DNA from: Okeania sp. KiyG1
GTDB lineage: Bacteria; Cyanobacteriota; Cyanobacteriia; Cyanobacteriales; Microcoleaceae
Assembly: GCF_014132355.1 (NCBI RefSeq)
Contig: NZ_BLZO01000113.1
Coordinates: 1 to 64,000 of the forward strand
Length of the DNA stretch: 64,000 nucleotides
Direction of reading: 5' to 3'
In this document: in pieces, positions 8,832 through 45,830 of the stretch
Layout: each line of letters begins with the position of its first letter
How positions within the stretch are numbered: the stretch's first letter is position 1
Made by a program: the position numbers and the translations under genes
The notes under the pieces: model-generated
Told to the model about the DNA's origin: nothing
Seen by the model: the letters and a program-made list of their open reading frames with translations, nothing else
The model's database searches: none

Positions 8832-10448
8832 ATGAATCTTATTAAACTTTTACTCAGCTATTCCCCTAAAAATTTTGCTTTGGCAGTATTGTCAGGTATC
8901 CTTAGTGGTGCTAGTGCAACAGGTCTAATTATTTTAATCAACAACGCATTAAGTCAGAGCTATTCATCAACAACTACTCTGGCTTGGCTTTTTGTAAGTC
9001 TCTGTCTCCTTCGAGTTATTACCAATTTTGCCTCTAGATTTTTTTTCATCTCTCTTTTAGAAGATTCTACCTTCCATTTACAAATGGATTTAGTTCGTAA
9101 AATTTTAGCATCTCCCCTACGTCAATTAGAAGAAATAGGAGTACCTCGTCTTTTAGCTACTTTTACTGAAGATATTGAAAAGATCGCCGACACAACTTCT
9201 ATTCTTCCTATTGTCTTGATTGACATTGCCATTTTATTCGGTTGTGGAATCTATGTTATTTGGCTATCTCCTACCGTATTTTTGATTGGTTTATGCCTTT
9301 TTATTTTAGGGTTATGTAGCTATTACTTATTAAAGAAAAAAGCCGAGTCCTGCTTTCAGTTAGCTCGAGAGCAGAAAGATAAACTAATTCGCCACTTCCA
9401 TACCATAATTAAGGGTAATAAAGAACTCAAACTAAATTATCAACGATGTAAATTATTTCTGAAACAGTATTTTGAAACTACTGCTGTATCTTATAAAGAT
9501 TATAATATTCGTGGTGAAAATATCTTTGCTGGTATGATTAGTTGGGGACAGATACTATTCTTTATTGTCATTGGTATCTTTCTATTTGCTCTGCCCAGAT
9601 TAATTAGTATCAATTCTGCTATTATATCTCACTATACTCTAGTTTTTATTTATGTTATGGCCCCTCTAGAACATGTGATTGGCTATCTTCCTAGATTAAG
9701 TAAGACTATAGTTTCTCTAAAAAATATTGATGATTTAGAGTTATCCGAACCAGTTAATTCCCAGCAAGAACACTCTCCCAATTTATTAGAATCAGTGGTT
9801 TCTTGGCAATGTTTAAAATTCATCGGTGTCACCCATGAATATGATAGAAAACTTGAAGAAAAAAAACCTATTATTGGTCCGATTGACTTGACATTTTATC
9901 CAGGGGAACTGGTTTTTATTATTGGCGGTAATGGTAGTGGTAAATCTACCCTCGCTAAATTAATTACCGGACTTTACACTCCTAAAAGTGGGGAAATTTA
10001 TCTAGATAATAATCTTATAGATTCTCAAAATAGAGAGTGGTATTGCCAACAATTTTCTGCTATTTTTTCTGATTTCCATCTATTTTATCCTTTATCGAGT
10101 ATAGAAAAAAAATGTGACTTGGATAACAAAATAAACTTTTATTTAGAAAAACTACAATTAGACGACAAGGTTAAAGTAAAAAACGGTGTTCTATCTAATA
10201 TGGATCTATCAACTGGACAGCGTAAACGCCTTGCTTTATTAGTTGCTTATCTCGAAGACAGACCAATATATTTATTCGATGAATGGGCTTCCGAGCAAGA
10301 TTATAAATTTAAGAAAATTTTCTATACTGAACTGCTACCAGAATTAAAGAGGCGAGGCAAAACTATACTGGTAATTAGCCATGATGATCAATATTTCGCT
10401 CTAGCAGACCGAATTATCAAACTTGAAAAAGGAAAAGTTATTAATTAA
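8832..10448 (+). CDS. Cyclic-peptide-export type ABC transporter (fused permease/ATPase), 538 aa
   Basis: Six predicted membrane helices lie in residues 1-290 (for example 16-38, 50-70, 125-167, 240-285). The ATPase half follows: Walker A GGNGSGKS near 365-372, signature LSTGQRKRL near 459-467, Walker B PIYLFDEW near 478-485 and the switch His in ISHDD near 517. The short ATPase with LSTGQRKRLALL and FDEWASEQD is typical of the SyrD/PvdE-like cyclic peptide exporters, which work as homodimers in the inner membrane and export peptides or siderophores. No synthetase or precursor peptide gene is adjacent; the next gene is an unrecognised protein with a 5' relic copy between them. The start ATG follows tacaactcaca without a strong Shine-Dalgarno. 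Confidence 0.85.
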   Translation: MNLIKLLLSYSPKNFALAVLSGILSGASATGLIILINNALSQSYSSTTTLAWLFVSLCLLRVITNFASRFFFISLLEDSTFHLQMDLVRKILASPLRQLEEIGVPRLLATFTEDIEKIADTTSILPIVLIDIAILFGCGIYVIWLSPTVFLIGLCLFILGLCSYYLLKKKAESCFQLAREQKDKLIRHFHTIIKGNKELKLNYQRCKLFLKQYFETTAVSYKDYNIRGENIFAGMISWGQILFFIVIGIFLFALPRLISINSAIISHYTLVFIYVMAPLEHVIGYLPRLSKTIVSLKNIDDLELSEPVNSQQEHSPNLLESVVSWQCLKFIGVTHEYDRKLEEKKPIIGPIDLTFYPGELVFIIGGNGSGKSTLAKLITGLYTPKSGEIYLDNNLIDSQNREWYCQQFSAIFSDFHLFYPLSSIEKKCDLDNKINFYLEKLQLDDKVKVKNGVLSNMDLSTGQRKRLALLVAYLEDRPIYLFDEWASEQDYKFKKIFYTELLPELKRRGKTILVISHDDQYFALADRIIKLEKGKVIN

Positions 10449-10525
10449 TCATATTTACCTTAAAAAAGACTAAAATTGTGACAGATGAATAAATATCTTT
10501 AAGCAGTTGAATCGAAACTATTATT

Positions 10526-10556
10526 TATAAAAGTTGGATGCTATCCAGCTTTTATA
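10526..10556 (+). terminator. Long hairpin after the ABC transporter gene
   Basis: TATAAAAG-T-TGGAT / ATCCA-G-CTTTTATA form a roughly 14-bp stem (one T-G pair) around gct, 78 bases after the transporter stop. It is not followed by a T-run (aaggtttc), so it may be a processing or stability structure rather than a standard rho-independent terminator. Confidence 0.4.
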
Positions 10557-10664
10557 AAGGTTTCTTGAAGTTGACTTCATAACATTGCAAATGAGGATAG
10601 GAATATCGTCTCCGGAACGAAGATAAATTGTAATGGAGAAAAAATTAACACACACAAATAAATT

Positions 10665-10760
10665 ATGAACAATTCAATTATCACATTAGTAGATGACCTA
10701 CCCAATGGTGGGATTACAGTTTAAGAATTACGCCCTTAGGTGGTAGGTTTTAAAGAGTAT
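10665..10760 (+). pseudogene. Relic of the 5' end of the 12790-13683 gene (19 codons then stop)
   Basis: From about 10597 to 10721 the DNA nearly matches 12722-12847: the same cgtctccggaac...aagataaattg leader, the same ATG, and the same first 19 codons MNNSIITLVDDLPNGGITV. It then runs into TAA, and only scraps (tggtaggtttt) of the remaining gene survive. This indicates that a second copy of the gene once stood here and most of it was deleted. Alternatively the short frame could be translated as a small peptide, but nothing supports that. Confidence 0.75.
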
Positions 10761-10790
10761 TTGTCAAATAAAATTAGAATTTTTAAGTTG

Positions 10791-10951
10791 AATAAAAAGT
10801 CATGCGTAGGTACGAACAACCCCCATTAAATACACAGTATCACAATTTTTTTGAGGATTCAAGGGAAAATCTCCCTGCGCCGCCGATTTTTTTAGTGCTT
10901 AACACAATGACAACTCGGTTGATGATGGTGGCGATCGCGGTGTGATTTGAT
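10791..10951 (+). repeat. First (upstream) copy of the 285-bp repeat family, left part
   Basis: Begins with aataaaaagtcatgcgtagg and continues with tacgaacaacccccattaaatacacagtatcacaa, the dispersed unit found five times in tandem at 13.9-15.3 kb. It carries a GCGATCGC site at 10931 and is interrupted at TTGAT (10947-10951) by the TnpB element; the unit resumes at about 12372 with tcaaagtctctatgg. Confidence 0.8.
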
Positions 10952-12370
10952 CTCAACGTTGGTTGAAGACCCGCGCTCTCCTCGTCGGGAGCGTCGTATG
11001 GGAAAAACAATCAATGTTGATATCTTACGCACAATGTGTTAAACTATGAAAAGTTAATCGGCTAACAGCAGATGGTTGAAAAGGCGTACAAATTCAGGTT
11101 CTATCCTACTCCAGAACAAGAAAGCTTGTTACGGAGGACTTTGGGCTGTGTTCGACTAATCTACAACAAAGCCTTAGCTGCTAGAACTCAAGCTTGGTAT
11201 AAACTCCAAGAGCGAGTAGGATTTGCTCAGACTTCAGCTATGCTTACCTCCTGGAAAAAACAGGATGACCTAGATTTTCTAAAAGAAGTCAGCAGTGTTC
11301 CATTGCAGCAAGGTTTGAGACATTTGCAAACTGCTTTTCCTTCGGAATGCTGCGCAAACACGAACTTTTTTAGTGGACGCGCCAAATACCCCAACTTTAA
11401 GAAAAAACGCAATGGTGGTAGTGCAGAGTTTACAAAATCTGCTTTTAAGTGGAAAGATGGTCAAGTCTACCTAGCTAAGTGTCCAGAGCCATTGCCTATT
11501 AGGTGGAGTAGACAATTGCCTAAGGGTTGTGTGCCAACTACGATAACGGTTAAACTTGACCCTTGTGGTAGGTGGTCTGTATCTTTGAGAGTTAATGACA
11601 CCAGAGATTTAACTCTCAAGCCAGTAACCAAACAAGTAGGTATTGACTTAGGAATCACTAGGCTATTAACTACCAGTGATGGAGAAAAGGTAGAGAACCC
11701 AAAGAATCTTCAGAAGCTACACAAAAAACTGAGATTAGCTCAAAAGTCCCTATCTAGAAAAACTAAGGGTTCTAATAACTATTACAAAGCCAGGCTGAAA
11801 GTAGCTAAGATACACGCCCGAATTAAAGATTCAAGACTTGACTACACCCATAAGCTGACCACTCAACTAATCAGAGAAAATCAAACTGTTGTGGTTGAGG
11901 ATTTAGCAGTAAAAAATATGGTCAAAAACCATAAGTTAGCTAGGGCAATAAGTGATGCTAATTGGTCCGAGTTAGTCAGGCAATTAGATTATAAGGCTAA
12001 ATGGTATGGACGGGAATTAATCAAAATTGATAGATATTTTCCCAGTTCTAAGCGTTGTTCTAATTGTGGTCATGTATTGGAGAAATTACCTCTAAATATT
12101 AGAGAGTGGGAATGCCCAGAATGTGCAGCTCACCATGATCGTGATCTTAACGCTGCAATAAATATTTTGCGGATGGGAACCCGCGTCGGCGTCAGACGCA
12201 AGGGAACGCCCACCAAGAAGGCTGCGGGACTCGCAGTGTCAGTCTGCGGAGCGACTGTAAGACCTGAAGAGATTACTCGGAGGGCGGGTGCTATGAGGCA
12301 GAAAGCCCCTAACAGCAATGCTAGGGAATCCCGCGCTGTCACGCAAGTGCAGCGTCGGGAGGATGTCAAT
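10952..12370 (+). mobile_element. IS200/IS605-type TnpB-only element (lineage B) inserted in a 285-bp repeat unit
   Basis: Comparison with the tandem repeat units shows where foreign DNA begins and ends: the repeat is left after TTGAT at 10951 and resumes near 12372. The left end has a TCAAC/GTTGA hairpin (10952 region) and a second GC-rich hairpin around 10974-11000. The right end terminates in GGAGGATGTCAAT. There is no target duplication, as expected of IS200/IS605 single-strand transposition. Only tnpB is carried, so mobility would need a TnpA in trans. Confidence 0.75.
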
Positions 12371-12421
12371 GCTCAAAGTCTCTATGGCAGAAATCTTTTC
12401 TTTGGATGCTTCATGGAATAA
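11072..12421 (+). CDS. tnpB: TnpB (lineage B) with a 7-residue micro-repeat insertion
   Basis: A 449-residue frame with MVEKAYKFRFYPTPEQ at the start (typical TnpB N-terminus), RuvC-I GIDLGIT, RuvC-II VVVEDLAVKNM, zinc ribbon CSNC/CPEC and Ruv[14 protein letters not shown]. The conserved protein probably ends functionally near residue 370; the last ~80 residues are translated from the omega-RNA region and, beyond about 12370, from flanking repeat DNA. Residues PSECCAN, between TAF and TNFF in the N-terminal domain, are encoded by a copy of the cctncggaatgctgcgcaaac micro-repeat, an in-frame 21-bp insertion. Whether the protein remains active is unknown; the catalytic residues are present. The ATG follows ggctaacagcag. 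Confidence 0.85.
   Translation: MVEKAYKFRFYPTPEQESLLRRTLGCVRLIYNKALAARTQAWYKLQERVGFAQTSAMLTSWKKQDDLDFLKEVSSVPLQQGLRHLQTAFPSECCANTNFFSGRAKYPNFKKKRNGGSAEFTKSAFKWKDGQVYLAKCPEPLPIRWSRQLPKGCVPTTITVKLDPCGRWSVSLRVNDTRDLTLKPVTKQVGIDLGITRLLTTSDGEKVENPKNLQKLHKKLRLAQKSLSRKTKGSNNYYKARLKVAKIHARIKDSRLDYTHKLTTQLIRENQTVVVEDLAVKNMVKNHKLARAISDANWSELVRQLDYKAKWYGRELIKIDRYFPSSKRCSNCGHVLEKLPLNIREWECPECAAHHDRDLNAAINILRMGTRVGVRRKGTPTKKAAGLAVSVCGATVRPEEITRRAGAMRQKAPNSNARESRAVTQVQRREDVNAQSLYGRNLFFGCFME
12180..12370 (+). ncRNA. Predicted omega-RNA of the lineage B TnpB element
   Basis: This segment is nearly identical at nucleotide level to the right end of the remnant at 58821-59030 (cccgcgtcggcgtcagacgc, ctgcgggactcgcagtgtca, ccctaacag...ctaggg, gcagcgtcgggaggatgtca). 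It is rich in complementary pairs, fitting a structured guide scaffold better than protein coding. It ends at GGAGGATGTCAAT; the following host sequence gctcaaagtctctatgg would be the guide. Boundaries at the 5' side are estimated. Confidence 0.55.
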
Positions 12422-12789
12422 TTTTTTTCTAACCTTACTGTATTGTTGGCGATCGCTTTTGAGTCCTTATATATACTTAGCTTGTAAAATGCTGTTTTTG
12501 TGTTGAATAAATAGTCATGCATGGGTACGAAGAACTCCCATTAAATACACAGTATCACAATTTTTTTGAGGATGCAAGGGAAAATCTCCCTGCGCCGCCG
12601 ATTTTTTCTAGTGCTTCACAGAATGATATTTTCCTTTACTTTATAAACTCTTGTAGGAATAGTAAAAGTAGAATTATTGTATTTGAACTACTTATCGGAA
12701 GATTTGCTCAATGCAAATAAGATAGAAATATCGTCTCCGGAACCAAGATAAATTGTAATGGAGAAAAAATTAACACAGACAAATAAATT
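12371..12789 (+). repeat. 285-bp-type repeat unit and leader of the orphan gene
   Basis: The resumed repeat (tcaaagtctctatggcagaaatc, HIP1 site near 12450, ttttgagtccttatatatac) is followed at 12506 by another unit start (aataaatagtcatgcatggg). From about 12720 comes the gene's own leader, cgtctccggaaccaagataaattgtaatggag, repeated at 10.6 kb. The aatggagaaaaa purine stretch before the ATG could be a ribosome binding site. Confidence 0.65.
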
Positions 12790-13683
12790 ATGAACAATTC
12801 AATTATCACATTAGTAGATGACCTACCCAATGGTGGGATTACAGTTTCAGCATTACGCGCTCTAGATTTCATCGTACCTGGAGAATGGAACAATTTAGTA
12901 GGTTTTAGAAATACTGTTCGTAAAGTAACTGGCGAAGAAGACTTAGAAAGGATTCAAAAAATCAGTGAGCGTGCTTTGTGGATATATAATGACGAATCTC
13001 AAGGTTATCAGGGCGCTATCTGGGCCTACCAAACCCTGGATAAAGCTGATGCTGCTATGGGTGCCGCAGCAATGGCCAACAAAATTGGTGAAAAAATCTC
13101 TTTCCTCAGTTTCCTGAATAAATTAACCCCATCAGCAGATAAAACTCAGGCAGTTGATTTAGCGATTAAGGTGGTGGGTGAGTTGGTTGCTTTCTGCAAA
13201 TTAAATGGAATGCCAACTAGAGAAAGTTTAGGAGATTTTTCGGCAGCTTTGGCAGAAGAATATAGTGGACCTTCTTTGATGCGAATGGTTGCTTTGGTGT
13301 GTTTTGATGGGTTGATTCCTTTGGGACCTGATTTTGTCGATCGCGTGGGAGATATTATTGGGGGAATGAGTTCTGCTGGTTTGCAACAAAATCCTTTGTT
13401 TCAGAAGGTAAATAATTTGATTCCTGGTGATAGTACCCAGGGTAAGCTTGATTTTATTGGTAATAGTTTTGATTCGGTTAGGGGTTGGATGAGTAATTTA
13501 GTTTCATCGCAAGGATTAGACCCTCAAATGATTATCGATCATTTACAAGGTTTTGTTGACATTGCTGATGATAAGTTGGATTATTTGGCGGCTTTTCTTG
13601 ATTTGACTACTAATTATTTTGAACATACTGGTACTCAAACTGTTGCTCGTCGTTTGATTTTGCAAGCGGCTGAGGAAGTTTGA
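12790..13683 (+). CDS. Unrecognised 297-aa soluble protein with its own repeat family
   Basis: I do not recognise the family. The protein has no signal peptide or membrane helix. It looks largely alpha-helical, with Ala/Leu-rich amphipathic segments (about 75-125 and 255-297), no clear nucleotide-binding or metal motif and two Cys. The N-terminus MNNSIITLVDDLPNGGITVSALRALDF is followed by VPGEWNNLVGFRNTVRKVTG. A decayed 5' copy lies 2.1 kb upstream, showing past gene duplication. It sits between units of the 285-bp repeat family, with five units directly downstream. Its codon use and openness suggest a real, conserved gene. The upstream ABC exporter may or may not be related in function. Confidence 0.75.
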   Translation: MNNSIITLVDDLPNGGITVSALRALDFIVPGEWNNLVGFRNTVRKVTGEEDLERIQKISERALWIYNDESQGYQGAIWAYQTLDKADAAMGAAAMANKIGEKISFLSFLNKLTPSADKTQAVDLAIKVVGELVAFCKLNGMPTRESLGDFSAALAEEYSGPSLMRMVALVCFDGLIPLGPDFVDRVGDIIGGMSSAGLQQNPLFQKVNNLIPGDSTQGKLDFIGNSFDSVRGWMSNLVSSQGLDPQMIIDHLQGFVDIADDKLDYLAAFLDLTTNYFEHTGTQTVARRLILQAAEEV

Positions 13684-13920
13684 ACAATTAATAATTAATA
13701 ATTAATAATTAATAATTAATAAATACATCTCCTTGAAAAGAAGAGGATTGATGCGGTAGGGAAAATTTTTTCTTCTCTTGGTCGATTGGATATGTGGTCT
13801 CATGGATATGACTCTGAGACCTCGTCATCCCTCGACCACTTTTTTTCTCCTTTAATTGTTGGCGATCGCTTTTGAGTCTCTATATATATGCTTAGTTGAT
13901 AAAATGCTGTTTTGCTGTTG
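13684..13920. repeat. aattaataattaataa tract and dispersed hairpin repeat
   Basis: Directly after the stop comes an aataattaataattaataatt tract, then aagaagaggattga, ttcttctcttggtcgattggatatg, a variant loop (tggtctcatggatatgactctgagacc) and the closing arm ccctcgaccactttttttctcc. The hairpin with following T-run could terminate the orphan gene's transcript. Confidence 0.6.
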
Positions 13921-15300
13921 AATAAAAAGTCATGCGTAGGTACGAGCAACCCCCAATAATTACATACTACTATGATTTTTTTCCCGATGCAAGGTATTTT
14001 TCCTTCCATCGCCGACTTTTTTGTAGCTCCACAAAATGCAGATTTTCTAATTCTTGCATTTGTGGCAAAATTCTTGTCTGTCGTTAATTTTCTTCTTTGG
14101 TGCTTCACAGAATGAAATATATTTAAGCGATCGCGACAGCGGAACGGAGTTCTATCGCTTCTACTAGCTTACAAATCATCCGTACATCTGTGGCAAAATC
14201 TCTATCTTGCTTTTGCGTTGAATAAAAAGTCATGCGTAGGTACGAGCAACCCCCAATAATTACATACTACTATGATTTTTTTCCCGATGCAAGGGGATAT
14301 TACTACGGTTTTGGTGCTTCACAGAATGAGTTATTGGTTTGTGATGGTAGCGATCGCTCTGTGAGTTTATTTATTAAAGTCTCTATGGGAGAAATCTTTT
14401 CTTTTGGTGCTTCACACAATGATTTTGGCTTCTGATGTGATTGTTGGCGTACGCTTTTGAGTCTCTATATATACTTAGTTTATTAAATGCTGTTTTTATG
14501 TTGAATAAAAAGTCATGCGTAGGTACGAGCTAACCCCAATAATTACATACTACTATGATTTTTTTAGGGATGCAAGGGGAATATCCTGCCGTTTTTTTTG
14601 GTGCTTCACAGAATGAATAATTGGTTTGTGATGGCAGCGATCGCTCTGTGAGTTTATTTATCAAAGTCTCTATGGGAGAAATCTTTTCTTTTGGTGCTTC
14701 ACACAATGATTTTGGCTTCTGATGTGATTATCGGCGTACGCTTTTGAGTCTCTATATATACTTAGTTTATTAAATGCTGTTTTTATGTTGAATAAAAAGT
14801 CATGTGTAGGTACGAGCAACCCCCAATAATTACATACTACTATGATTTTTTTAGGGATGCAAGGGGAATATCCTGCCTATTTTTTTGGTGCTTCACAGAA
14901 TGAGTGATTGGTTTGTGATGGTAGCGATCGCTCTGTGAGTTTATTTATCAAAGTCTCTATGGGAGAAATCTTTTCTTTTGGTGCTTCACACAATGATTTT
15001 GGCTTCTGATGTGATTGTTGGCGTACGCTTTTGAGTCTCTATATATACTACTCACTTGTAAAATGCTGTTTTTGCGTTGAATAAAAAGTCATGTGTAGGT
15101 ACGAACGACCCCCAATGATTACATACTACCATGATTTTTTTAGGGATGCAAGGGGAATATCCTGCCGTTTTTTTTGGTGCTTCACAGAATGCAGAATCAG
15201 ATTAATCATCTGTGCATCCGTGGCAAAATCCTTGTCTTGCCCTGACTTCTCCCACTCTAAAAAAAATTTTCCCGCTCCAGGAGAGGGAAAGAAAAAAGAA
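13921..15300 (+). repeat. Five tandem ~285-300-bp repeat units
   Basis: Unit starts (aataaaaagtcatgygtagg) lie at 13921, 14221, 14504, 14791 and 15080, spacings 300, 283, 287 and 289. Each unit contains tacgagc(a/t)acccccaataattac, a tatgatttttt tract, gatgcaagg, two copies of ggtgcttcacaNaatga, a GCGATCGC site in most, caaagtctctatgggag and gagtctctatatatac. Two further units lie at 10791 and 12506. Short frames beginning at the ATG in the unit start (M-x-RYE-x-x-P...) occur in every copy but differ by mostly amino-acid-changing substitutions and end at different places, so protein coding is doubtful. Confidence 0.85.
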
Positions 15301-15381
15301 AAATAGACTAAAGGGGCAAAAGAGGAAAAGAGAAAAGGGCTACAGAGTTATCCCGCCTGAACACACAATACGAAAACCAAT

Positions 15382-15456
15382 ATAGTTGCCGAGGTCGTCG
15401 CGCCTAACGTCGTAGCTGCGATACGCGGAACGGCAGTAATAAGGATAGCTGATCCA
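15382..15456 (-). other. Candidate DGR variable region in the FGE domain
   Basis: Codons after RGGSW are ATC AGC TAT CCT TAT TAC, then TGC CGT TCC GCG, TAT, CGC, AGC TAC GAC GTT, AGG CGC GAC, and GAC CTC GGC AAC TAT before IGFR. The surface positions are all NNY codons, and the fixed positions (P, CRSA, RRD, IGF) spell the usual framework of FGE-type DGR targets. NNY at chosen sites is what A-specific mutagenesis of AAY template codons yields. The stretch is visibly more GC-rich than its surroundings. No template repeat or reverse transcriptase was found in this window, so both would lie elsewhere. Confidence 0.7.
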
Positions 15457-16500
15457 GGAACCGCCCCGCAGCAGAGGATAAGAATCATTTCCATCTAACC
15501 AAACACTTCCATCTGTAGGTGCACCTTCATAGTTATCGTGCCAATCATCAGCACACCATTCCCAGACATTGCCGTGCATATCGTATAAACCAAAACTATT
15601 GGGTGGAAAAATTCCCACATCTGTTGTTTCTTGACGATATTTTCCTTCCGGTTCATCAGCATAAGTATAGTTGCCATTAAAGTTAGCTAACTCAGACGTT
15701 ATAGTTTTGCCAAAATAAAATGGTGTGGAAGTTCTAGCTCGACAAGCATATTCCCACTGACTCTCAGTTGGTAAACTATATTTTTTACCTGTTATTTGCG
15801 AGAGTTTCTGACAAAATTTTGTGGCGTTGTTCCAACTTACTCTTTCTACAGGACGGTTTGTACCTTTAAACCTAGAAGGATTATTTTCATTTCTAGTTCT
15901 CATAATCACCTGCCAAAAATTCTTTTTTCCCATAACTGCTTGCCACTGTGCTTGAGTGACTAGATACTTTCCCATGAAAAATTCTGGTACATCTACATAA
16001 TGTTGTGGACTTTCACTATCCCTTCTCTTTGCTTCTGTCTCTGGAGACCCCATGAGAAATCTACCTGCGGGAATTTTTACCATTTCTAGGGTGACTCCAT
16101 TACCGAGGTTTTCTGTCATTACTTCTGCTTGATGTTGACGGCGACTGATTATTTCTCCTCTGGTATTTACTGTCACAGTCTTAAATTTTTGAATGGAAAT
16201 ATTTTTAGTAGAGGCAGATGCCAATATTGTTTTTGCTGGTTTTGTCATTGGTATGGGTGTGGGTTTTAGTATGGGTAGAGGTTGTTGTTGAGGAGAAGGA
16301 ACTGCTAATACTGTTCCTTCTTGAAAATGGGCAAATAGTTTTGGTATTTGGTCTGAGTCTTTGCCTCGTTTGTATAGGGTTTCTGCTTCTGTTTCAAATA
16401 ATCTTTGGGCAATAGCTAACACTCCTGGGTCTGAGCTTTTGGGTGATAGATGTTTGACTACACATTTTGGTTTGCCTGGTAAGTCTAAATCTTCAGCTAA

Positions 16501-16703
16501 CGGGACTTACACAAAAAAGCAGCAAAAAATAGCCTCAAATATAGACAGCTAGAGGATTTTACGTGGAAAAGATATAATTCCTTTATTGGCAAGGGTTCTA
16601 GCAATTTTTAGGGTTTTGACGTAATTCCCTTGCCTAGACTGACTTTTCCTGGGTCATGCTGCGCAAACAAGCATTTTTCTGTTCTGAAAATGTGTAAGTC
16701 CCA
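16501..16703. mobile_element. 203-bp MITE (family 1, TIR CGGGACTTACACA), copy 1
   Basis: The ends GGGACTTACACA and TGTGTAAGTCCC are perfect 12-bp inverted repeats, flanked by the direct repeat CTAA (16497-16500 and 16704-16707). Removing the element and one CTAA restores the kinase reading frame (DTYL|AEDLD), which proves insertion. The interior includes attcctttattggcaaggg and a micro-repeat (gtcatgctgcgcaaacaagc). Copy 2 is at 45627-45830. The CTAA/TTAG 4-bp duplication resembles the YTAR targets of IS5-group elements; that link is inference. Confidence 0.9.
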
Positions 16704-16788
16704 CTAAGTAGGTATCTCCGAATCCTCGACTTCCTAGAGTGTCTATTATTTTGTATCGTTGTCTCAGAATTTTTCCAGACTGTATCAT

Positions 16789-18207
16789 TACTTTTCAGTT
16801 ATCAGTTGTTCAGTTATTCAGTTATCAAATTTCTTTGTAAACTGCCTAGCTTTGTGTAATTTAAAGAAGTAGTTAGCGGTCAGTTTTCAGTATACTTTTT
16901 GTGGGACACCCTCGTTTATGTAACATTCTGTTAGGAGATAAGAAGCCGGGGATTTTTACCCAGAGCTTTAACTAAGTCAGAAGTTATTTTTGTAACGCAT
17001 TTGAGCAAGCCTCCAAAAATATTTTGCCTTAAAAGGCGGGGTTGTGCGACCCAATTATTTTGATAAAAGCTGATAGCTAGTTAATTTTGCTGTTAAGTTA
17101 GGGAAATATTGTTTTTTTGGCCTAATTTATTTGAGTATATATGAGCGCACCTTTTCCATTATATTTATAATATCATGTCAAGTTTTTTTGTCAACCCCCC
17201 TTTTTTCAGTTATCAGTTATCAGTTATCAGTTATCAGTTATCAGATTTCTTTGTAAACTGCCTAGCTTTGTGTAATTTAAAGAAGCAGTCAGCGGTCAGT
17301 TTTCAGTAGACTTTTTGTGAGGCACCCTCGTTTATGGAACATTCCGTTAGGAAATAAGAAGCCGGGGATTTTCACCAAAACATGAGGTCTAAAGTGTCCC
17401 CTTTTAAGGGGATGAAAGAATATTCAGTTCAGTATTTCAAGCCTCCGTCTTTAGTGGTCGGTACTGATAACTGAAGTCCGCAGTTCCTCCGGAGGAGGCT
17501 AACTGATAGCGTAGCTCCGACCACAGGAGGCTAACTGATAACTGAAATGACCGAGAGCTTTAACGAAGTCAGAAGTTATTTTTGTAACGGGGATTTGAGC
17601 AAGTCTCCAAAAATATTTCGCCTTAAAAGGCGGGGTTGCGCGACCCAATTATTTTGATAAAAGCTGATAGCTAGTTAATTTTGCTGTTAAATTAGGGAAA
17701 TATTGTTTTTTTGGCCTAATTTATTTGAGTATATATGAGCGCACCTTTTCCATTATATTTATAATATCATGTCAAGTTTTTTTGTCAACCCCCCTTTTTT
17801 CAGTTATCAGTTATCAGTTATCAGTATCCAGTTAGTAGTAGGACTTGAGTAATAAAATCAATATTTAATGTGCTAAAGCTCTACTACAGACAAAGGAGAT
17901 TTCAACAATTAGTAAAGCTTTTATCTAAAACTAAAAGCAATAGCTGATAGCTGAATGTTTACTTTCTTCCTTATTCCTTCTTCCTTCTTTCTTCTTCCTT
18001 CTTCAATTGTTACTCTTTACTATAAAGTAGAGATAATAGGATATTTTTTATCAAAATAATATGGGTTTAAAACCCCGTCTTTTAAGGGGAAATATTTTTG
18101 GAGTGGGGTTTAAATCCCCTATTTCCCCTCCTGGGAGGAGTTAGGGGTGGGTTAACTTCTGACTTCTGACTTCTAACTTCTTACTTCGTTAATAGGGGAT
18201 AACAAAG
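16789..18207. repeat. Repeat-filled spacer with an imperfect ~410-bp tandem duplication
   Basis: Copy A (16796-17206) and copy B (17207-17800) share cagttatcag stutters, tttctttgtaaactgcctag, the gaagccggggattt segment, aaggcggggttg(t/c)gcgacccaa, gagtatatatgagcgcacc and tatcatgtcaagttttttt. Copy B has an extra ~180 bp near 17373-17555 made of other repeats (gtccgcagttcctccgga, ggaggctaactgat). A related stretch occurs at 37200-37325. From 17940 simple cttcttcctt runs and tctgacttctgacttc repeats lead to the antiporter gene. No gene is seen. Confidence 0.7.
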
Positions 18208-20286
18208 TTGCTTTCACAAAATCCGATTGTTACATTTACGATTCTTTTATTAGTAATTCTCACTCTTCCACCTCTATTTGAGCGTCTCAGACTTCCAGGA
18301 TTAGTGGGTTTATTAGTGGCAGGAATTGTTTTAGGTGGAGATGGATTAAAATTACTCGATCCCGAAACAGAAACTATGAAGTTATTATCAGATATTGGTA
18401 AGGTTTATCTGATGTTTGTCGCGGGATTAGAAATTGATTTAATAGAATTTAAAAAAAATCAAGACCGCTCTCTTGGTTTTGGCATTGCCACATTTTTATT
18501 CCCACTTATTACTGGTACATTAATTGCCAAAATATTTGGTTTGGGTTGGAATGGTGCAATTTTAACAGGTTCTTTACTGGCTTCTCATACTCTTTTAGGT
18601 TATCCCATTGTTCAGCAGTTGGGTGTAGTGGGAAATCAAGCAATTACTGTTACTATTGGGGCGACTATTTTTACTGATATTGCTGCTTTATTAGTTCTGG
18701 CAATTTGTGTGTCGATTAATGCTGGTAATTTTTCGGTGATTAGTTTGGCAATTCAATTGGGAAGTTTGGCTATTTATGCGGGGATAATTCTTTGGGGTTT
18801 TCAATGGGTGGGTAAGCAATTTTTCCGACGAACTACTAATCAAGAAAGTAATCAATTTTTGTTTGTTTTGTTGGTTGTGTTTATTGCTGCTTTGGGTGCA
18901 ACATTGATTAATGTCGATCAAATTGTTGGTGCTTTTCTGGCAGGTTTAGCGATTAATGATGTGGTGGGTAAAAGTCCGGTTAAGGAAAAAATAGAGTTTG
19001 TTGGGAGTGTTTTATTTATTCCTTGTTTTTTTGTTGATATGGGATTATTGCTGGATATGTCGGCTTTTGTAAATACTTTTTTGACTAGTTTTGAATTAAC
19101 TTTATCTATTATTTTGGGTTTGCTTGGGAGTAAATTTTTGGCTGCGTTTTTGGCAAAAAAGATTTATAAATATAATTGGCATGAAACGATGAGTATGTGG
19201 TCTTTATCTATGCCACAGGTGGCTGCTACTTTGGCTGCTGCATTGGTGGGTTTGCAAGTAGGAATTTTGCCGGAGGTAATATTTAATAGTGTAATTTTTT
19301 TGATGTTAGTGACATCCATTTTAGGTCCGATTTTGACTGCTAGGTTTGCGAGTAAAATTTCTGTGCCCGAGGTGGATTTTTCGTCGGATAATTCTTTGAT
19401 TTGGTGGGAAACTCATCAGCAAGTTCCAGATAGTTTTACGGAGAGGGTTGATGGAATTTTTAATCATAAGTTTGTTGTATTAGTGCCTGTATATTTTTCT
19501 CCAGAACAAACAAAATATTTAATTGAAATGGCAGTAATGTTGGCAAAGCATGAGGGTGGTTTAATGATTCCTTTATCTATAGTAAAAGGTTATCTAAATA
19601 TGGATGCTCCTGAGTTAAATTTGGCTTTACAACAGAGTAGTGAAAGGTTAGATTCTGTTTTAGAAATTAGCCAAAGTTTTGAAGTTGATGCTACTCCAGA
19701 AATCAGAATTTATGATGATTTTGCTAAAGGTGTTAGTCGTACAGCACGGGAAAAAAATTCTAGTTTGATTGTGATGGGTTGGCACGATACTACTGGTATT
19801 AAAGCCCGTTTATTTGGAAGTATAATAGACCGGGTATTTTGGTCTGCTCATTGCCCGGTAGCTGTGGTACGTTTGTTGGAAAAACCGATTAATATTCATC
19901 GGATTTTAGTACCAGTTAAAAATATTACTCCCCAAGCATTAAGAACTGTACGTTTTGCTCAACTTTTTGCTGATGCTAATCAAGCTTCTGTAACTCTACT
20001 TCATGTATGCGATCGCCAGACTTCTAAGGAACAAATTACTAAGTTTCATTCCCAACTTTCTCAGCTTATTTCTCAGGGAAAAAACGAGGTAAAGTCGAGA
20101 ATTAAAATTATTCGTTATGATGATGTTGCTCCTGTAATTAGTAAGGCAGCAAAATCATATCAATTAGTAGTATTACGTTCGATGCGACGACGTACTGCGG
20201 CAGGATTATCTGTTAGTGATGTTACTACTAAAGTTTTGTCAGAAATTACTTGTTCAGTTGTTATATTTGGAGAACCTTATTCTTAG
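18208..20286 (+). CDS. CPA2-type cation/proton antiporter with C-terminal UspA domains (paralogue 1)
   Basis: 692 residues from a TTG start preceded by aggggataacaaag, with GGGG well spaced as ribosome binding site. Residues 1-385 contain about 12 membrane helices of the Na+/H+ exchanger (CPA2, KefB/NhaS-like) fold, including PPLFERLRLPGLVGLLVAG near 20 and GATIFTDIAALLVLAICV, whose TD replaces the usual ND/DD ion-binding pair. Residues about 420-550 and 560-690 are two universal stress protein domains (KFVVLVPVYFSPEQ, SSLIVMGWHDTTG, IHRILVPVKNITPQALRTVRFAQLFADA). The family exchanges Na+ or K+ for protons across the plasma or thylakoid membrane; soluble Usp domains may sense nucleotides. The next gene is a close paralogue, pointing to tandem duplication. 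Confidence 0.85.
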   Translation: MLSQNPIVTFTILLLVILTLPPLFERLRLPGLVGLLVAGIVLGGDGLKLLDPETETMKLLSDIGKVYLMFVAGLEIDLIEFKKNQDRSLGFGIATFLFPLITGTLIAKIFGLGWNGAILTGSLLASHTLLGYPIVQQLGVVGNQAITVTIGATIFTDIAALLVLAICVSINAGNFSVISLAIQLGSLAIYAGIILWGFQWVGKQFFRRTTNQESNQFLFVLLVVFIAALGATLINVDQIVGAFLAGLAINDVVGKSPVKEKIEFVGSVLFIPCFFVDMGLLLDMSAFVNTFLTSFELTLSIILGLLGSKFLAAFLAKKIYKYNWHETMSMWSLSMPQVAATLAAALVGLQVGILPEVIFNSVIFLMLVTSILGPILTARFASKISVPEVDFSSDNSLIWWETHQQVPDSFTERVDGIFNHKFVVLVPVYFSPEQTKYLIEMAVMLAKHEGGLMIPLSIVKGYLNMDAPELNLALQQSSERLDSVLEISQSFEVDATPEIRIYDDFAKGVSRTAREKNSSLIVMGWHDTTGIKARLFGSIIDRVFWSAHCPVAVVRLLEKPINIHRILVPVKNITPQALRTVRFAQLFADANQASVTLLHVCDRQTSKEQITKFHSQLSQLISQGKNEVKSRIKIIRYDDVAPVISKAAKSYQLVVLRSMRRRTAAGLSVSDVTTKVLSEITCSVVIFGEPYS

Positions 20287-45626: not shown

Positions 45627-45830
45627 CGGGACTTACACAAAAAAGCAGCAAAAAATAGGCTCAAATATAGATAGCCAGAGGCTTTTACGTCGAAAAGGTA
45701 TAATTCCTTTATTACCAAGGGTTTTAGCCATTTTTAGGGCTTTGACGTAATTCCCTTGCCTTAGAGTGACTTTTCCTGCGGAATGCTGTGCAAACAAGCA
45801 TTTTTCTGCCCAGAAAATGTGTAAGTCCCA
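45627..45830. mobile_element. MITE family 1 (TIR CGGGACTTACACA), copy 2
   Basis: 204 bp with ends CGGGACTTACACA and TGTGTAAGTCCCA, flanked by TTAG (45623-45626 and 45831-45834). It is about 90 percent identical by eye to the copy that interrupts the kinase-FGE gene, in the same orientation; the micro-repeat inside is here cctgcggaatgctgtgcaaa. Confidence 0.9.

What the first reader, a model, noticed from the sequence alone, without database searches (positions are those of the whole stretch)
15340..15560. DGR-type variable region in a kinase/FGE gene with no local reverse transcriptase or template
The C-terminal FGE segment has all NNY codons at the positions that vary in FGE-type DGR targets, between fixed GC-rich framework codons (TGC CGT TCC GCG; AGG CGC GAC; ATT GGT TTT CGT). 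This suggests targeting in trans by a retroelement elsewhere in the genome. If so, the window holds a distant recipient gene, and the region next to it (repeat array and orphan gene) may be part of a remote target locus.
Basis: partly seen in the sequence, partly recalled or inferred. Interest (0 to 1): 0.8.

Follow-up and report, generated by a model that had tools for sequence, protein, structure and literature searches.

The report
Remote retroelement-diversified gene lacking its template
A short stretch at the end of this probably cyanobacterial gene carries the marks of targeted rewriting by a diversity-generating retroelement, but neither the matching template nor an intact enzyme was found in the assembled genome; distant targets of this sort are already known, so it is a well-documented new example of a known kind.

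Summary
The 3' end of an FGE-domain ORF (minus strand, variable region about 15345-15465) has 17 NNY codons out of 17 scored variable positions, against 46% NNY upstream. Nine FGE genes of this genome share its framework. A template predicted from them was not found in the own genome, but a pattern built from it found five loci in other cyanobacteria, each beside a DGR-type reverse transcriptase and an Avd-like ORF. Against three of these templates, and one on a Nostoc plasmid, the window differs at about half the template-A sites but at only 3-4 of 63-68 other sites. Against a homologue in a congener it differs at 19/32 A sites and 0/61 others. It is a DGR variable region.

'Targeted from elsewhere in the genome' is only half right. 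The one DGR cassette found here (contig C43) has another template framework (18/59 non-A mismatches with the best gap) and its RT is split by an insertion. So this is a remote target without a visible donor. Its kinase half is wrecked. The neighbouring repeat array is a dispersed repeat. New member of a known kind.

The parts
15345..15465 (-). DGR-type variable region (VR), 3' end of the FGE domain; NNY codons in a fixed framework
   Evidence: Aligned to positions 22-142 of the Crocosphaera template query. 17/33 template-A sites and 4/66 other sites differ from that template. 17 of 17 scored variable codons NNY.
15340..16422 (-). ORF of 360 aa (GTG start as listed; true start unknown) holding the FGE-sulfatase domain; the frame is open up to 16503
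   Evidence: PF03781 E 6.4e-59, residues 140-380 of P0001.
16312..16500 (-). Kinase remnant, residues 27-89 of the homologous C124 kinase; the catalytic core (about residues 90-278) is absent
   Evidence: tblastn, 76% identity, E 6.5e-28
16502..16702 (.). MITE-like insert between terminal inverted repeats GGGACTTACAC/GTGTAAGTCCC, splitting the kinase start
   Evidence: Both repeats located; a second pair lies at 45628 and 45819
16690..16785 (-). Kinase remnant, first residues including the glycine-rich loop (match runs to 16642 but the part below about 16700 lies in the insert)
   Evidence: tblastn, 51% identity, E 4e-8

Best explanation
The window holds a remote DGR target. A retroelement of the cyanobacterial DGR clade made mutagenised cDNA from a template RNA (framework like TGG AAC AAC AAT CCT AAT AAC TGC CGT TCC GCG TAT CGC AAC AAC AAC AAT AGG CGC...) and wrote it over the 3' end of this FGE gene, changing template adenines only (mechanism inferred from known DGRs; the A-specific footprint is shown). 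The same template class stamped at least eight other FGE genes in this genome and genes in all five congeners searched. Neither that template nor an intact DGR RT was found in this assembly, so the gene now looks like a donor-less target: either the donor was lost, or it sits in the missing part of the genome or on a mobile replicon. The kinase that once preceded the FGE domain is broken; what the FGE module binds is unknown. It is presumably a ligand-binding module (inference from the family).
For: NNY excess. Nine own VRs share one framework. The pattern built from the predicted template found five loci, five of five with RT, Avd-like ORF and a second VR-like copy nearby; for one (Crocosphaera) Pfam confirms RVT_1 and bAvd. 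Window against templates: Westiellopsis 15/31 A and 3/68 other, Nostoc desertorum 14/31 and 3/68, Crocosphaera 17/33 and 4/66, Nostoc plasmid pn2 17/32 and 3/63, although the FGE gene itself is only 65% identical to the N. desertorum gene and 62% to the Crocosphaera one. Between congeners 19/32 A and 0/61 other sites (G005:C503, Fisher 1.2e-11). Over 276 pairs of 24 VRs the means are 19.1/32 and 6.6/61. Own cassette C43: TR/VR differ at 14/38 A and 4/113 other sites, RT split.
Against: No matching template in the genome, so the test against the gene's own template is impossible. Two sister targets are nearly frozen between species (C85 0/32, C144 2/32). Other templates fit less well: Hyella 9/65 and Nostoc CHAB 5836 9/70 non-A mismatches, Microcystis plasmids 8/67 and 9/63. 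Some sister VRs have drifted (10-15 of 66 non-A mismatches to the Crocosphaera template for C66a, C46, C144, C82; C82's count is inflated by one extra codon). The genome is 92.4% complete, so absence is not proof. The foreign templates were found with a pattern that demands AAY at several positions.
Confidence: 0.87

Rival explanations
1. The donor is present but unassembled: a type-1 DGR (template of the window framework plus intact RT and Avd) sits in a contig gap, a repeat collapse or a plasmid of this strain, and still rewrites the window gene in trans.
For: Genome 92.4% complete in 198 contigs. Six cyanobacterial plasmids among the listed hits carry such RTs and templates, one (Nostoc pn2) with 3/63 non-A mismatches to the window VR.
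Against: No template of this framework in any of the six genomes of the genus (no match over 86% identity), five of them 96-99% complete; an RT of this clade in only 2 of 6, the second (G002) with templates of the other framework.
Confidence: 0.35
2. Retired target: the donor was lost after past activity and the VR is now an ordinary, selected sequence.
For: Own RT split by an insertion. Two sister VRs frozen between species. Kinase half destroyed. NG86 dN/dS of the FGE part 0.39-0.55 in the seven window comparisons within the genus.
Against: The window VR keeps the template framework very closely (3-4 of 66-68 non-A mismatches to three foreign templates) and 0/61 to G005:C503, which suggests that rewriting was recent relative to the divergence of the gene.
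Confidence: 0.45
3. No retroelement: the VR differences come from strong diversifying selection or gene conversion between FGE paralogues.
For: Many paralogues (31 PF03781 matches in the genome); the binding face of such proteins could be under positive selection.
Against: Selection on residues does not predict a third base of only C or T in 17 of 17 codons, nor differences at template-A sites with none of 61 others changed. Apart from the two orthologue-like pairs, no pair of 276 differs at fewer than 10 of 32 A sites, so no recent exchange between the sampled VRs is seen.
Confidence: 0.03

Closest known systems
Cyanobacterial DGR remote variable proteins (kinase plus C-terminal CLec), Vallota-Eastman et al. 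2020, PMC7517822 (abstract and sections 5, 6, 7 read)
   Same: C-terminal CLec/FGE module with the VR at the 3' end, kinase-type N-terminus in the ancestor, many dispersed paralogues, targets far from the RT, transposons nearby, RT and Avd of the same kind. They report 76 remote targets in 21 genomes and one PCC 7120 gene (all3226) with remnant TR-VR homology and no proximal RT.
   Different: Here the kinase is broken and no template of matching framework was found in the assembly; their remote targets were tied to a DGR of the same genome.
Trichodesmium erythraeum IMS101 DGRs with dispersed targets (passages of PMC8867640 seen; Pfreundt et al. 2014 not held, known here only through that citation)
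   Same: Two DGR-RTs and TR/VR homology at 18 loci, including remote targets, in a filamentous cyanobacterium.
   Different: There the RT and templates are present; here RT and template for this VR were not found.
Thiohalocapsa PB-PSB1 DGR loci, Dore et al. 2024, PMC10907252 (abstract, sections 7 and 18 read)
   Same: CLec targets; transposons and MITE-like repeats breaking RT genes and templates.
   Different: Different phylum; loci mostly keep their own cassettes.
TvpA, Treponema denticola variable protein (PDB 2y3c)
   Same: Sequence relative of the window FGE domain (E 1.1e-17), a DGR variable protein by its name in the PDB.
   Different: The closest solved chain is PvdO (5hha, E 1.7e-42); TvpA is a more distant match.

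Membership tests
DGR variable-protein target | VR at the 3' end of a C-type-lectin/FGE-fold domain | tested here: met
   PF03781 E 6.4e-59; VR 15345-15465 ends close to the stop codon
DGR variable-protein target | Variable codons derived from AAY (NNY in the VR) | tested here: met
   17/17 scored codons NNY against 46% upstream, P 1.7e-6
DGR variable-protein target | Differences from a template confined to template adenines | tested here: met
   Only against templates of other genera: 15/31 A and 3/68 other, 14/31 and 3/68, 17/33 and 4/66, 17/32 and 3/63. Looser against Hyella 19/34 and 9/65, Nostoc CHAB 5836 15/29 and 9/70.
DGR variable-protein target | Cognate template in the same genome | tested here: not met
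   Predicted template not found in the 92.4% complete assembly; the C43 template has 18/59 non-A mismatches with the best gap
DGR variable-protein target | Intact DGR reverse transcriptase and Avd in the same genome | tested here: not met
   One DGR-type RT, on C43, split into two pieces by an insertion; the next best match to it scores only E 6.6e-9. Seven of the 36 RVT_1 matches were not motif-checked.
DGR variable-protein target | Hypervariability between related genomes | tested here: met
   Window against four length-comparable homologues: A sites 19, 19, 19, 15 of 32; other sites 0, 4, 6, 6 of 61. Not met for sister targets C85/G003 and C144/G005.
DGR variable-protein target | IMH and a stem-loop marking the target | not tested
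   No fold or IMH analysis was run
DGR variable-protein target | Active mutagenic retrohoming | not testable with these tools
   Needs reads or cultures
Cyanobacterial kinase-CLec remote variable proteins | Intact N-terminal Ser/Thr kinase (the commonest architecture, not an obligatory one) | tested here: not met
   Insert after about residue 26 and jump from residue 89 to 279; Pfam finds only FGE-sulfatase in P0001

The most novel reading that the evidence does not exclude
In this genus the diversifying machinery is a visitor: a mobile DGR (for example plasmid-borne) with the type-1 template enters, stamps and diversifies dozens of chromosomal FGE receptors in trans, and is lost again, so that targets outlive donors. 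Template framework shared across orders would then spread by the donor, not with the target genes.
Probability: 0.25. Interest if true: 0.65.

Novelty: new member of a known kind. Interest (0 to 1): 0.38.

Why it matters
It shows that a DGR template can be predicted from orphan targets alone and then recognised in other genera, and that targets with fresh template framework can exist in genomes with no visible donor. If confirmed with closed genomes, it would make it testable whether DGR diversification is done by resident or by visiting elements.

Tried and rejected
Own-genome cassette C43 as donor: rejected on framework and on the broken RT. My first comparison of the C43 template with the window VR (27/55 non-A mismatches) was ungapped although that template is one codon shorter; it overstated the difference and is replaced (18/59). 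The ungapped figures for Fischerella, Anabaena, Acaryochloris and the G002 templates suffer from the same fault and are not used. One search's row for the second G002 template is not used either, because I had added its last six bases by assumption and the string was not found in the loci.

Repeat array as part of a target locus: rejected (104 matches genome-wide). Group II intron RTs as donors: the other RTs that showed both motifs carry G-x-x-x-S-P, not S-Q. Template tail search in the genus: besides C43 and G002 it gave two one-mismatch hits (G003:C228, own C162) with no template-like match nearby. Phage collection: 75 records, all under 60% RT identity. Viral contigs: 0 matches to the template pattern. 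Rfam on 10000-19000: no match. En bloc switching of VR type between target groups: flanks and VR type are discordant, but the evidence is only suggestive. Family search: in many genomes only 13 candidates were scored, so absence of templates beyond the genus is not established.

Rows dropped before counts: the 276 pairs use 24 of 29 type-1 VRs; five were left out for another length (C82, G002:C223b, G005:C456, G005:C223, G003:C228).

Full report
What is there. The window is bases 1-64000 of contig C113 of an unnamed 10.98 Mb genome in 198 contigs, 92.4% complete. That it is a cyanobacterium is my inference: the five template loci found later are all cyanobacterial. The ORF 15340-16422 (-) holds one Pfam domain, FGE-sulfatase.

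Sister targets. The genome has 31 FGE-sulfatase matches. Searching with the window's 3' end gives eight further places with E of 3.5e-18 or better, all in FGE genes: C91 (two), C66 (two), C82, C46, C85 and C144. Their codon alignment shows fixed codons alternating with NNY codons. From it I wrote down a predicted template. It was not found in the own genome: the best matches (86%) are the VRs themselves, and the C43 template follows at 77%. In the genus (six genomes including the own) no match exceeds 86%.

The prediction tested. A relaxed pattern of the predicted template, scanned over 84,980 species, gave five stretches: Westiellopsis prolifica, Nostoc desertorum, Hyella patelloides, a Crocosphaera MAG and Nostoc sp. 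CHAB 5836. Each of the five lies just downstream of an RT ORF with GNLTSQ and YVDD motifs and an Avd-like ORF, with a second VR-like copy (81-89% identical) nearby. Pfam confirms RVT_1 and bAvd for the Crocosphaera locus, the only one scanned. Window VR against the templates: 15/31 A and 3/68 other sites (Westiellopsis), 14/31 and 3/68 (N. desertorum), 19/34 and 9/65 (Hyella), 17/33 and 4/66 (Crocosphaera), 15/29 and 9/70 (CHAB 5836). The rest of the FGE domain is only 65% (N. desertorum) and 62% (Crocosphaera) identical, with third positions at 52% and 46%. So the VR framework follows the template, not the gene. Caution: the pattern itself asks for AAY codons; the RT, Avd and second copies are the independent evidence.

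Between species. Window against length-comparable homologues in congeners: G005:C503 19/32 A and 0/61 other sites, G002:C179 19/32 and 4/61, G005:C163 19/32 and 6/61, G003:C168 15/32 and 6/61. C503 is the cleanest of these, not the closest by every measure: its FGE part is 90% identical over 534 bp by BLAST but 86% in a codon alignment of 195 codons, against 89% for C179 and C163. Orthology is not established. For C85, flanks 94% identical go with 19/32 and 18/32 A-site differences (G004:C33, G005:C219). Against this, C85 and G003:C244 (97%) have 0/32, and C144 and G005:C49 (99%) have 2/32. Over 276 pairs of 24 VRs the means are 19.1/32 and 6.6/61; three pairs have 0/61.

The donor. The own genome has one DGR-type RT, on C43, beside a template and a VR that differ at 14/38 A and 4/113 other sites. 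Its RT is split: residues 1-129 at L041 7694-7308 and 121-349 at 5605-4919, with a DDE-transposase ORF between. The second best match to that RT in the genome scores E 6.6e-9, whereas RTs of this kind from other genera are 66-68% identical to it. Of the 36 RVT_1 matches, seven were outside the loci I motif-checked. The C43 template differs from the window VR at 18/59 non-A sites with the best one-codon gap. In the genus an RT of this kind is found in 2 of 6 genomes; the one in G002 is uninterrupted and lies between two templates of the C43-like framework.

Plasmids. Among the 20 listed of 30 plasmid records with an RT match, six are cyanobacterial. All six carry a template-like copy and four have an annotated avd gene. 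The Nostoc pn2 template has 3/63 non-A mismatches to the window VR; the two Microcystis plasmid templates have 8/67 and 9/63. This makes a visiting, plasmid-borne donor possible; it is not shown.

The kinase. Against the 405-aa C124 kinase-FGE fragment, the window keeps the start, is interrupted by a MITE-like insert (16502-16702), resumes at residues 27-89, and jumps to 279. G005:C503 also lacks a stretch, jumping from residue 153 to 373, while G002:C179, G005:C163, G004:C33b and G003:C168 run through without such a jump as far as the loci reach. NG86 dN/dS of the FGE part is 0.39-0.55 in seven comparisons within the genus, which suggests but does not prove that the FGE module is still under constraint.

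Known or new. Remote FGE/CLec targets with kinase N-termini are described for cyanobacteria (PMC7517822, abstract and sections 5-7 read), as are dispersed targets in Trichodesmium (passages of PMC8867640) and transposon-broken DGR loci (PMC10907252, abstract and sections 7 and 18). So this is a new member of a known kind. The less usual part is the absence of a matching donor in six genomes of a genus whose targets keep a fresh template framework. I did not find this stated in the papers I saw (searches, of which only the three papers named were opened), but the search was narrow.

Noticed in passing
14217-15191: Tandem array with a 287-bp period beside the FGE gene; its unit has 104 matches in the genome, often in arrays (C114, C116, C133, C187, C69, C42 and others), and also lies beside FGE genes in congeners. 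A dispersed repeat of unknown nature.
   Followed up: partly
15240-15342 (downstream of the VR on the minus strand): Pyrimidine-rich tract just after the stop codon. Of 37 target loci, 15 have a run of 15 or more pyrimidines within 110 bases, against 1.6% of 5000 random window stretches. Paralogues share flanks, so the loci are not independent; it may be a cis element or simple duplication.
   Followed up: partly
16502-16702 and 45628-45829: Two MITE-like elements with GGGACTTACAC terminal repeats; the first breaks the kinase.
   Followed up: no
L041 7651-8076: The Avd-like ORF of the C43 cassette carries an in-frame insert of eight residues (within PTPNPSQEG) that the homologues lack.
   Followed up: no
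L117 3427-8632: Another kinase-FGE gene (C124) is in pieces, with group II intron-type RT ORFs and transposase-like ORFs between them.
   Followed up: no
L182 (G060:C15): A template-tail-like sequence without a template body, about 0.9 kb from a VR, in another genus of the family.
   Followed up: partly
11072-12421: IS605-type TnpB ORF about 3 kb from the FGE gene; IS200/IS605 is the transposase family reported as most widespread near such targets (PMC7517822, section 6).
   Followed up: no
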